This document shows, in pieces, positions 52,278-54,272 of a stretch of 58,109 nt of DNA. This DNA comes from an uncultured Bacteroidia bacterium. Its GTDB lineage: Bacteria; Bacteroidota; Bacteroidia; J057; CALLMJ01. Location of the stretch: contig CALLNY010000016.1 of the NCBI GenBank assembly GCA_938005475.1, positions 1-58,109 on the forward strand, written 5' to 3'. Under the pieces are notes generated by a model. The model was not told the DNA's origin. It did no database searches and saw only the letters and a program-made list of their open reading frames with translations. Both the position numbers and the translations under genes were made by a program. Each line of letters opens with the position of its first letter. The first letter of the stretch is position 1.

Positions 52278-53927
52278 TTATACTAACGAAAAAGAAAATA
52301 ACTTGATAAGCCATTCAATAAACCAATGAAAATGGTAAGTTTTTCGTGTTAGTTTTTCAATCGCTTTATTTGGCTGTATAAAATTACCTATGTGTTTATG
52401 GCTTAAATTATTTTTTTCTAATATTTTTCCTGTATCATTTAGGATATTAAAAGCTTCTTCGGTTGTAAGATTAGGTTTGATGGACTTCATGACACCAATA
52501 ATTCCTGAAACATAGGGCGTTGCCATAGAAGTACCATTTAATTTCTTATATTGATTATGGGGCGTTGTAGATAATATATCTACTCCAGGAGCGGCTATCC
52601 CATATTTTTGTTCAGTAAAGTAATTAGAAAACGAAGCTTTTCTTAAATTCGAATCTACTGCGGCAACCGTAATACAATTCGAGCAACATGCAGGAGCAAA
52701 ATATTTTGCATCCATGTTGTTGTTTCCAGCGGCAACTACCACAATAGCGCCTTTTTTATTGCAATATTCAATAGCTTCTTCGTAAGCCGCTTGTCTTGAA
52801 TCGCTTGAAGGACCTCCTAATGACATAGAAATTACATCGGCTCCTAAATCAGCCGCTAATATCATTCCATCAATAATCTGCTCCTGTCTTCCCTTCCCAT
52901 TCGGTAAAACTGTTATACTTGTAACTTTACAAAAACGATTATTGTAATTCAGAGAAGCCACTCCTATTTGATTGTTAGTTACCGCAGCGGCAATGCCCGC
53001 ACAATGGGTTCCATGTATTTCAGTATCCCTATCGTATTCTTTGGAAACTGAAAAATAATTTTCTTTTAAATCCTCATGATTTGCATCTAATCCCGTATCT
53101 AAAATAAATATTTTACTTATTTTTTTAGGTTTAATTCGTTTAAGTTTTGTAACAAATTCATCTATATTTAACGCATATAAAGCCCATTGCTCTATTGAGT
53201 GAACATCATTGATAGTAGAAAAAGAAATAGGCTTTTTATGCCCTGTATTAGACTCTTCGGGAAGTACTTCATATTTATCATTCCATTCAATAGAAGAGAT
53301 CAGCTTTGAATTTTTTAGTAATTCATATACTTTATTAGCAATTTCATCATTCTCTACATCAATAGTATACCAGTTATCTAAATCCGTTAAATCTTTATCT
53401 TTTATAAGAGGAAAGGCTTCCTCTATTTCAAATTTAATACTCTGACTATTTAAATAATTTTTTAATGCAGGTAGCTGAGAATTATCATTTAAAGAAATTA
53501 ATAATTCCGCAGAGTAATTACTTTTGGGAAGTTCTGATACCCAATCCTTAATTTTTACAAAATCTCTTTGTAGTTCATCTATCAAATTCTTTTTTATTCC
53601 CCAGTATATCCCAAAACTTATCCAAAAAAAAGTAAATAAAATCGCTAGTTTTTTGTTCTCAAAAGCTATAATCGATAAAACAATTAACAAAAGGTCTCTT
53701 ATTACCCAGAAAACCCAAAAGTAATCAACCCCTATTTCACTATTATAATTACAATAAAAAGCAATGAAATGAAGAACTAGGTTGAAGATTATAAGATAAG
53801 ATAGAAAGGATTTTATTTTCGAAAATTTATTAGATAAATCCAATAAATTCCATATGTAAATAAAAATAACTAAAGTACTAAGTGTTATGGGATAAAATCT
53901 TGCAATTATAACAAAATATTGTTCCAT
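52278..53927 (-). CDS. Membrane-anchored subtilisin-like serine peptidase (S8)
   Basis: The 549-residue protein begins with about four membrane helices (residues ~8-135). A propeptide-like domain follows (~145-235, AELLISLNDNSQLPALKNYL, LISSIEWND), then a complete subtilase domain. The catalytic triad is present: Asp in IFILDTGLDANHEDL (~277), His in EIHGTHCAGIAAA (~306) and Ser in LNGTSMATPYVSG (~466), plus the oxyanion AAGNNN. The last ~20 residues are hydrophobic/aromatic. N-terminal membrane helices are unusual for subtilases, which are normally secreted. The 81-residue gene lies 12 nt upstream in the same unit. Confidence 0.87.
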   Translation of the reverse strand: MEQYFVIIARFYPITLSTLVIFIYIWNLLDLSNKFSKIKSFLSYLIIFNLVLHFIAFYCNYNSEIGVDYFWVFWVIRDLLLIVLSIIAFENKKLAILFTFFWISFGIYWGIKKNLIDELQRDFVKIKDWVSELPKSNYSAELLISLNDNSQLPALKNYLNSQSIKFEIEEAFPLIKDKDLTDLDNWYTIDVENDEIANKVYELLKNSKLISSIEWNDKYEVLPEESNTGHKKPISFSTINDVHSIEQWALYALNIDEFVTKLKRIKPKKISKIFILDTGLDANHEDLKENYFSVSKEYDRDTEIHGTHCAGIAAAVTNNQIGVASLNYNNRFCKVTSITVLPNGKGRQEQIIDGMILAADLGADVISMSLGGPSSDSRQAAYEEAIEYCNKKGAIVVVAAGNNNMDAKYFAPACCSNCITVAAVDSNLRKASFSNYFTEQKYGIAAPGVDILSTTPHNQYKKLNGTSMATPYVSGIIGVMKSIKPNLTTEEAFNILNDTGKILEKNNLSHKHIGNFIQPNKAIEKLTRKTYHFHWFIEWLIKLFSFSLV

Positions 53928-53939
53928 ATTCTTTTCAAT

Positions 53940-54185
53940 TTAATCAATTTTTTTTATACTTAAAACTTCGTAAAATATACCATTCATAAAGATATTGACT
54001 ACATCCTCTGGGGATTTCTTTAATAAAATGGCTACCCGAATTCCTTCCTGTCTAAATTCATGAGGAAGGTTATTTAAATTATAAATTGTATTATTCTCAT
54101 TCAGCCTCCAAAATCCCCCTTCTAAATTTTCATATTCTATTGTCCCGATGTGCAACGATATAGGTAGGTCTATTTTTATTTCCAT
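53940..54185 (-). CDS. 81-residue partner of the membrane subtilase
   Basis: This small protein has no signal peptide. Its sequence (HIGTIEYENLEGGFWRLNE, LNNLPHEFRQEGIRVAILLK, FYEVLSIKKI) forms a compact beta-rich domain. I recall similar G-T-x-x-Y-x-x-LEGGFW proteins of unknown function, often small and sometimes exported, but cannot name the family. It precedes the subtilase gene by 12 nt and shares its promoter, whose -7 box ends 4 nt before this ATG. An inhibitor, activator or substrate role towards the protease is an inference from position only. Confidence 0.8.
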   Translation of the reverse strand: MEIKIDLPISLHIGTIEYENLEGGFWRLNENNTIYNLNNLPHEFRQEGIRVAILLKKSPEDVVNIFMNGIFYEVLSIKKID

Positions 54186-54189
54186 TTAG

Positions 54190-54197
54190 CAAAAATA
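54190..54197 (-). promoter_or_regulatory. -7 box (TAttTTTG) for the 81-residue gene and subtilase, 4 nt before ATG
   Basis: A perfect match with four bases before ATG 54185; it implies a leaderless two-gene mRNA. Confidence 0.65.
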
Positions 54198-54272
54198 ATG
54201 AATTTTTACAAAAATGAACAAACTTTCCGCTAATTTTTTTACACAAAATGCTTTCTCTTTTGAAATTTACTA

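What the first reader, a model, noticed from the sequence alone, without database searches (positions are those of the whole stretch)
52278..54197. Two-gene operon: membrane-anchored subtilase plus 81-residue partner
The subtilase has four N-terminal membrane helices, a propeptide-like domain and a complete catalytic triad, an unusual layout. A small compact protein of unrecognised family is encoded 12 nt upstream under one likely leaderless promoter. Small genes beside proteases often encode inhibitors, triggers or substrates. Depending on topology, the protease could face the cytoplasm and act as a regulated toxin or signal protease. This is the best candidate here for an undescribed functional pair.
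Basis: partly seen in the sequence, partly recalled or inferred. Interest (0 to 1): 0.55.

Follow-up and report, generated by a model that had tools for sequence, protein, structure and literature searches.

The report
Paired membrane subtilase and OB-fold partner
A small, apparently cytoplasmic OB-fold protein is encoded directly before a membrane-anchored subtilisin-type protease, and the two genes tend to occur together in several lineages of the Bacteroidota, which suggests a dedicated protease and partner pair, perhaps an enzyme and its inhibitor.

Summary
In detail: an 81-aa gene (54185..53940, minus) lies 12 nt before a 549-aa S8 protease (53927..52278, minus) with four membrane helices, a propeptide and a full triad; a promoter-like element ends 4 nt before the first ATG. 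The pairing is conserved. In 22 genomes of the order, 15 have the small gene, all 15 have the protease, 12 adjacent. Signal-less small genes occur with the protease in 18 of 19 class genomes and 18 of 20 phylum genomes that have them (15 of 15 in the phylum without doubtful cases). Seen from the protease the link is looser: 18 of 21 and 15 of 28 genomes have a sure signal-less partner. The small protein meets no Pfam or NCBIfam model; its model is a five-stranded OB-like barrel whose best PDB match, by a modest margin, is potempin A, a protease inhibitor whose gene directly precedes its protease. Unlike potempins it has no signal peptide, while charge rules put the protease domain in the periplasm. 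Best reading: a cytoplasmic guard inhibitor, potempin-like in fold and gene order, staphostatin-like in location. Binding and inhibition are untested. Toxin or defence roles are not supported.

The parts
53940..54185 (-). 81-aa OB-like partner protein, no signal peptide; conserved G14, G23-G24-F25-W26, P41, M67, G69
   Evidence: ORF and translation; no Pfam, NCBIfam, PADLOC or single-sequence PDB hit; model pLDDT 84.1, five strands; best fold matches potempin A; column counts
52278..53927 (-). 549-aa membrane-anchored S8 protease (subtilase)
   Evidence: PF00082 E 1.4e-47; triad D277/H305/S467
53595..53915 (-). four predicted membrane helices, residues about 5-111, N-out/C-out by the positive-inside rule
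   Evidence: hydropathy, model helices, charge counts in 47 relatives
53262..53519 (-). propeptide (I9-like) domain, residues about 137-222
   Evidence: superposition of model residues 137-528 on pro-Tk-subtilisin and pro-subtilisin E; end judged from model strands
52413..53117 (-). S8 catalytic domain, residues about 271-505
   Evidence: Pfam and PDB sequence matches
54190..54222 (-). Bacteroidetes-type promoter-like element TTTG-N21-TANNTTTG, 4 nt before the ATG of the small gene, consistent with a leaderless mRNA (consensus recalled)
   Evidence: pattern search, 17 in window against 5.98 expected

Best explanation
The two genes are a dedicated protease and partner pair. The protease is inserted in the inner membrane by four N-terminal helices, and its pro- and catalytic domains are moved to the periplasm, where the propeptide is cut and the enzyme matures. 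The small OB-like protein stays in the cytoplasm and binds the catalytic domain of any protease that folds there too early or fails to be exported, so it acts as a guard inhibitor. Shown here: gene order, conservation, co-occurrence, domain layout, predicted fold. Inferred: topology (charge rule), maturation, binding, inhibition, and the guard role.
For: Adjacent in 12 of the 15 order genomes that have the small gene; all 15 have the protease. Signal-less form and protease together in 18 of 19 class and 18 of 20 phylum genomes that have that form (Fisher p 4e-27 and 4e-22, relatedness of genomes ignored; the two samples overlap). Adjacent pairs lie in unlike neighbourhoods: SMC, DnaG, a CAP protein, a di-haem cytochrome c peroxidase in the window. 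The best fold match among 350,542 PDB chains is potempin A, entitled a metallopeptidase inhibitor (Foldseek E 0.006-0.02, next unrelated chain 0.022; VIA Z 8.4-8.8, rmsd 2.7-3.1 over 74-75 residues, next unrelated row 7.7). A sequence profile of the exported sister subfamily also ranks potempin A first (E 0.07, next unrelated 1.1). Potempin genes directly precede their protease genes (PMC7296668 and PMC4404884, passages), the order seen here. A cytoplasmic inhibitor of an exported protease has a precedent in staphostatin B (PMC4490255, passage).
Against: No binding or inhibition was tested, and no complex was modelled. OB folds are common, potempin A matches at 20% identity, no Foldseek match is below E 0.001, and unrelated OB folds follow closely. 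The profile of the protease-linked form did not find potempin A. The predicted compartments differ, so partner and mature enzyme would not meet after export. Many genomes have the protease without a sure signal-less partner: in the order 3 of 18 (G011, G017, G020), in the class 3 of 21 (G011, G017, G369), in the phylum 12 of 27 (G417 left out as a non-member): G369, G502 and G543 with no small gene found, and G423 plus the eight f106 genomes with only an exported or doubtful form. G017 cannot be judged, as its sequence there holds a run of N. The propeptide alone might keep the enzyme silent.
Confidence: 0.5

Rival explanations
1. The small protein is a positive factor: a chaperone, insertion aid or adaptor that binds the cytoplasmic loops or the nascent protease and is needed for its assembly or activity.
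For: It is cytoplasmic by sequence, and the K/R-rich loops 1-2 and 3-4 of the protease are predicted to be cytoplasmic. Signal-less forms are rarely found without the protease.
Against: The first fold matches are inhibitors. Genomes with the protease and no small gene found (G011, G020, G369, G502, G543) suggest that it is not always needed.
Confidence: 0.22
2. The catalytic domain faces the cytoplasm and the small protein is an ordinary same-compartment inhibitor.
For: It would remove the mismatch of compartments. In the window protein the 25 residues after helix 4 are also K-rich (6 K/R against 5 D/E), and over 47 relatives the 15 residues after helix 4 hold 1.66 K+R on average, less than loops 1-2 and 3-4 but more than the N-tail and loop 2-3.
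Against: In 47 of 47 four-helix relatives loops 1-2 plus 3-4 hold more K+R than N-tail plus loop 2-3 (means 2.81 and 2.74 against 0.26 and 0.51), and in 44 of 47 even with the 15 residues after helix 4 added to the latter. A propeptide is typical of exported subtilases (established knowledge).
Confidence: 0.1
3. The small protein works on something else (a ligand- or nucleic-acid-binding OB protein or a regulator) and is only co-expressed with the protease.
For: OB folds of SSB and PriB match nearly as well (Z 6.6-7.5). In four loci the gene lies beside an S24-like gene (L032, L034, L035, L062), in two beside an LRR gene (L031, L075). The exported sister subfamily occurs mostly without this protease.
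Against: The nine unlinked, complete signal-less copies in the order and class samples (G002, G005, G007, G059, G098, G159, G217, G331, G351) lie in genomes that also carry the protease; the exceptions are a partial match (G255) and two doubtful phylum cases (G427, G730). Adjacency recurs in unlike neighbourhoods.
Confidence: 0.13
4. Toxin, phage-defence or mobile module.
For: Partial similarity of the S8 domain to PADLOC subtilase and IetS models (E 1.8e-21 and 5.5e-10), as may be expected for an S8 protease.
Against: No PADLOC hit among seven neighbours, no match to the small protein in plasmids or phages, SMC and DnaG genes as neighbours elsewhere, conservation in the order.
Confidence: 0.03

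Closest known systems
Potempins of Tannerella forsythia (PotA, PDB 8b2m, 8b2n, 8b2q; PotD, 8ehb) with the KLIKK proteases
   Same: Small OB-like barrel; gene directly upstream of a protease gene; Bacteroidota; best fold matches of the small model; PotA is also the first sequence match of the exported sister subfamily.
   Different: Potempins are described as lipoproteins and their proteases as secreted; here the partner has no signal peptide and the protease has four membrane helices. No sequence match of the protease-linked profile to PotA; the six Tannerella ORFs are said to share no significant similarity with each other either.
Staphostatins (SspC and relatives) with staphopains
   Same: Cytoplasmic inhibitor of an exported protease, same operon (PMC4490255, passage).
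   Different: Cysteine protease, inhibitor gene downstream, lipocalin-like fold (PMC2873492, passage).
Subtilase family S8 with I9-type propeptide (thermitase, pro-Tk-subtilisin)
   Same: Catalytic domain, triad and propeptide.
   Different: Four N-terminal membrane helices in place of a cleaved signal peptide.
Type VII mycosins (TIGR03921)
   Same: Best NCBIfam match; membrane-linked subtilases (recalled).
   Different: 118 bits against a cut-off of 278.75.

Membership tests
Peptidase family S8 (subtilases) | S8 catalytic domain with Asp/His/Ser triad and oxyanion Asn | tested here: met
   PF00082 162.9 bits against cut-off 21.8; D277, H305, N402, S467
Peptidase family S8 (subtilases) | I9-type propeptide before the catalytic domain | tested here: met
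   model residues 137-528 superpose on unprocessed pro-subtilisins, Z 33.6-34.7
Potempins | small barrel with the potempin A fold | tested here: met
   PotA first in Foldseek (E 0.006; next unrelated chain 0.022) and VIA (Z 8.8; next 7.7): a modest step above other OB folds
Potempins | gene directly upstream of a protease gene | tested here: met
   window; 12 of 15 order genomes with the gene
Potempins | lipoprotein signal peptide | tested here: not met
   domain begins near residue 13 and no hydrophobic stretch precedes it
Potempins | sequence relationship | tested here: inconclusive
   profile A4 (signal-less forms) does not find PotA; profile of exported sister forms ranks it first, E 0.07; the two profiles match each other at probability 99.9
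Potempins | inhibits the neighbouring protease | not testable with these tools
   needs a biochemical assay
Staphostatins | inhibitor of a C47-type cysteine protease | tested here: not met
   the neighbouring protease is an S8 serine protease
Staphostatins | lipocalin-like fold | tested here: inconclusive
   no staphostatin among the 50 rows shown in each list; absence does not exclude
T7SS mycosin | NCBIfam TIGR03921 score above cut-off | tested here: not met
   118 of 278.75 bits
IetAS-type defence | IetS score above the NCBIfam cut-off, with a partner ATPase IetA nearby (partner recalled) | tested here: not met
   NF042956 22 of 900 bits; no PADLOC hit among seven neighbours

The most novel reading that the evidence does not exclude
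Inside-out control of a periplasmic protease: the cytoplasmic OB-like protein senses a ligand or state, binds the cytoplasmic loops of the four-helix anchor, and switches the subtilase on the other side of the membrane on or off, a site-1-protease-like signalling module conserved in the Bacteroidota.
Probability: 0.13. Interest if true: 0.8.

Novelty: new variant of a known kind. Interest (0 to 1): 0.5.

Why it matters
It adds a conserved protease and partner pair that the libraries and papers searched here do not describe, and it hints that the potempins of the periodontal bacterium Tannerella have relatives in a larger OB-like family of Bacteroidota whose members differ in compartment. If true, the origin of these inhibitors, and how cells protect their cytoplasm from membrane subtilases, become directly testable.

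Tried and rejected
Defence, toxin or mobile module: rejected. Mycosin or PatA identity: far below cut-offs. A weak profile match of the small family to toxic shock syndrome toxin (E 0.03) is taken as chance: it rests on a GG-aromatic motif, and the fold is a different one (recalled). A domain tree to show that the protease-linked forms are one clade was inconclusive: FastTree and IQ-TREE disagree on where the exported forms of family f106 fall, and the window genus lies on a long branch. No staphostatin appeared in the fold lists, which excludes nothing. Literature: eight searches (potempin, KLIKK, OB-fold inhibitor, staphostatin, membrane-anchored subtilisin or subtilase and others) listed no paper that, by title and start of abstract, describes this pair; most subscription papers are not in that library. 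The paper I recalled as the main one on potempin structures, and the staphostatin B deletion paper, are not held. That PotA folds as an OB barrel is inferred from its structural neighbours. The inhibitory activity of potempins is stated in PMC7296668 as data to be published; the PDB titles call PotA an inhibitor.

Limits of the counts: the signal-peptide call is a simple hydropathy rule. Signal-less forms without the protease: G255 (partial match, E 0.002) in the class; G427 (frame cut by a TAG) and the second copy of G730 in the phylum. Without the five doubtful or fragmentary phylum cases (G423, G427, G600, G610 second piece, G730 second copy) the phylum count is 15 of 15. G730 and G610 count in both forms. 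One class genome (G177, E 0.009) and the weak second hit of G001 (E 0.008) were not fetched. In the class and phylum searches only the best candidates per genome were scored (at most 14 for the small gene, 6 for the protease), so absences there are less sure than in the order, where all were scored. Fisher tests ignore relatedness, and the class and phylum samples share genomes. The phylum protease count of 28 holds one non-member (G417, no membrane helix). Six of the 53 N-terminal matches did not show four helices by my threshold, G417's among them; some matches are cut off by a locus end. In one search my ORF picker chose antisense ORFs in GC-rich loci; for these I used the coordinates.

Full report
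What is there. The window (contig C16 of a 2.63-Mb draft genome) carries, on the minus strand, a gene for an 81-aa protein (54185..53940) and 12 nt later a gene for a 549-aa subtilase (53927..52278). Upstream lies a TTTG-N21-TANNTTTG element that ends 4 nt before the first ATG; the pattern is nearly three times as common in the window as in shuffled sequence (17 against 5.98), so a leaderless transcript is plausible.

The protease. It has four hydrophobic helices, a propeptide and an S8 domain with D277, H305, N402 and S467. The model (pLDDT 72.5) superposes from about residue 137 to 528 on unprocessed pro-subtilisins (Z 33.6-34.7). Of 53 distinct N-terminal matches collected (one a non-member), 47 show exactly four helices, and in all 47 loops 1-2 and 3-4 together hold more K+R than the N-tail and loop 2-3 (means 2.81 and 2.74 against 0.26 and 0.51; the 15 residues after helix 4 hold 1.66). 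The positive-inside rule therefore puts the propeptide and catalytic domain in the periplasm. In the window protein the signal is weaker, since the stretch after helix 4 is also K-rich.

The small protein. It matches nothing in Pfam, NCBIfam, PADLOC or, as a single sequence, the PDB; two PHROG families of unknown function match weakly (E 0.04 and 0.11). With 25 relatives it folds to a five-stranded barrel (pLDDT 84.1). Foldseek ranks potempin A chains first to fourth among 350,542 chains (E 0.006-0.02), but an unrelated protein follows at 0.022; VIA gives PotA Z 8.4-8.8 over 74-75 residues, the rest 7.7 and less. A sequence profile of the exported sister subfamily also puts potempin A first in the PDB (E 0.07; next unrelated chain 1.1), while profile A4, of signal-less forms, does not find it. 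The two profiles are clearly related (hhalign probability 99.9).

Is it a pair? In the 22 held genomes of the order, 15 have the small gene and 18 the protease; all 15 are among the 18, and in 12 the genes are adjacent on one strand. In 395 genomes of the class, 39 have some form of the small domain and 21 the protease; in 395 of the phylum, 52 and 28. Sorting the small domains by signal peptide explains much of the difference: signal-less forms occur with the protease in 18 of 19 class genomes and 18 of 20 phylum genomes (10 and 11 adjacent), exported forms in 0 of 19 and 7 of 34. In 28 protease-adjacent copies W26 is present in 28 and P41 in 26; in 43 exported copies W26 in 16 (Tyr in 21, Phe in 6) and P41 in 14. 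Gaps between the genes run from an overlap of 4 nt to 145 nt in the 16 pairs measured. The neighbourhoods differ: an SMC gene in six Saprospiraceae-type pairs, a DnaG gene in five f98 pairs, a CAP gene in five loci of the Aureispira group, a di-haem cytochrome c peroxidase in the window (Pfam tested for one SMC, one DnaG and two CAP proteins and the window gene, the others judged by eye). A shared old neighbourhood alone does not explain this. Where the signal-less gene lies elsewhere (beside an S24-like gene, an LRR gene, a DUF697 gene or others), the nine genomes with complete copies in the order and class samples still hold the protease (G002, G005, G007, G059, G098, G159, G217, G331, G351).

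Against the pair. Seen from the protease, the link is looser: 15 of 18 order, 18 of 21 class and 15 of 28 phylum genomes have a sure signal-less partner. G011, G020, G369, G502 and G543 have the protease with no small gene found. In the phylum, G423 and eight f106 genomes have the protease with only an exported or doubtful form, not next to it. G017 cannot be judged because of a run of N beside its protease.

How it may work. The known arrangement that fits gene order and fold is that of the potempins, where each KLIKK protease gene is preceded by a small lipoprotein gene (PMC4404884, passages) said to encode an inhibitor of that protease (PMC7296668, passages). The known arrangement that fits the compartments is staphostatin B, a cytoplasmic inhibitor of an exported protease (PMC4490255, passage). 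I therefore take the small protein to be a cytoplasmic guard that silences protease molecules folded on the wrong side. Rivals are a chaperone or adaptor for the protease, a same-compartment inhibitor if the topology is wrong, and an OB protein with another task. None of these is excluded by sequence. A toxin or defence role is disfavoured.

Membership. The protease is an S8 subtilase with an unusual anchor. The small protein is not filed as a potempin, because the lipoprotein signal was tested and is missing; it may work like one.

Verdict. A real and conserved pair that I found described nowhere in the libraries and papers searched; mechanism likely inhibition, confidence one half; new variant of a known kind.

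Noticed in passing
L037-L048, L114, L119, L120, L123, L125-L130, L158-L165 and others: A sister subfamily of the small domain has signal peptides, many lipoprotein-like, and lies beside formyltransferase (tested in L037), MnmA-type (tested in L130) or fumarase-like (by eye) genes; the 20 members scanned meet no clear Pfam family. It may be the wider family to which potempin A belongs.
   Followed up: partly
L032, L034, L035, L062: The signal-less small gene lies directly after a Peptidase_S24-like gene (PF00717, E 6e-14 to 9e-8) in four loci, another serine peptidase fold.
   Followed up: partly
L055:7936-8883, L057:7970-8923, L058:7891-8841, L059:8010-8975, L060:8017-8991, L061:7870-8829: In six of six Saprospiraceae/Aureispira loci a gene of 316-325 aa, lipoprotein-like by eye, follows the protease; the one tested (L057) has no Pfam match. 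It could be a third component or a substrate. That the six are homologous was not tested.
   Followed up: no
L127:1399-2550: The exported small domain is fused to a longer protein (384 aa in all) of unknown kind in genome G540.
   Followed up: no
window, whole: TTTG-N17-23-TANNTTTG promoter-like elements: 17 found, 5.98 expected from shuffles, so the Bacteroidetes promoter type is probably in use here.
   Followed up: partly
L055, L057-L060: A CAP-domain gene (PF00188, tested in L055 and L057) lies divergently upstream of the small gene in five of the six Saprospiraceae/Aureispira loci.
   Followed up: no
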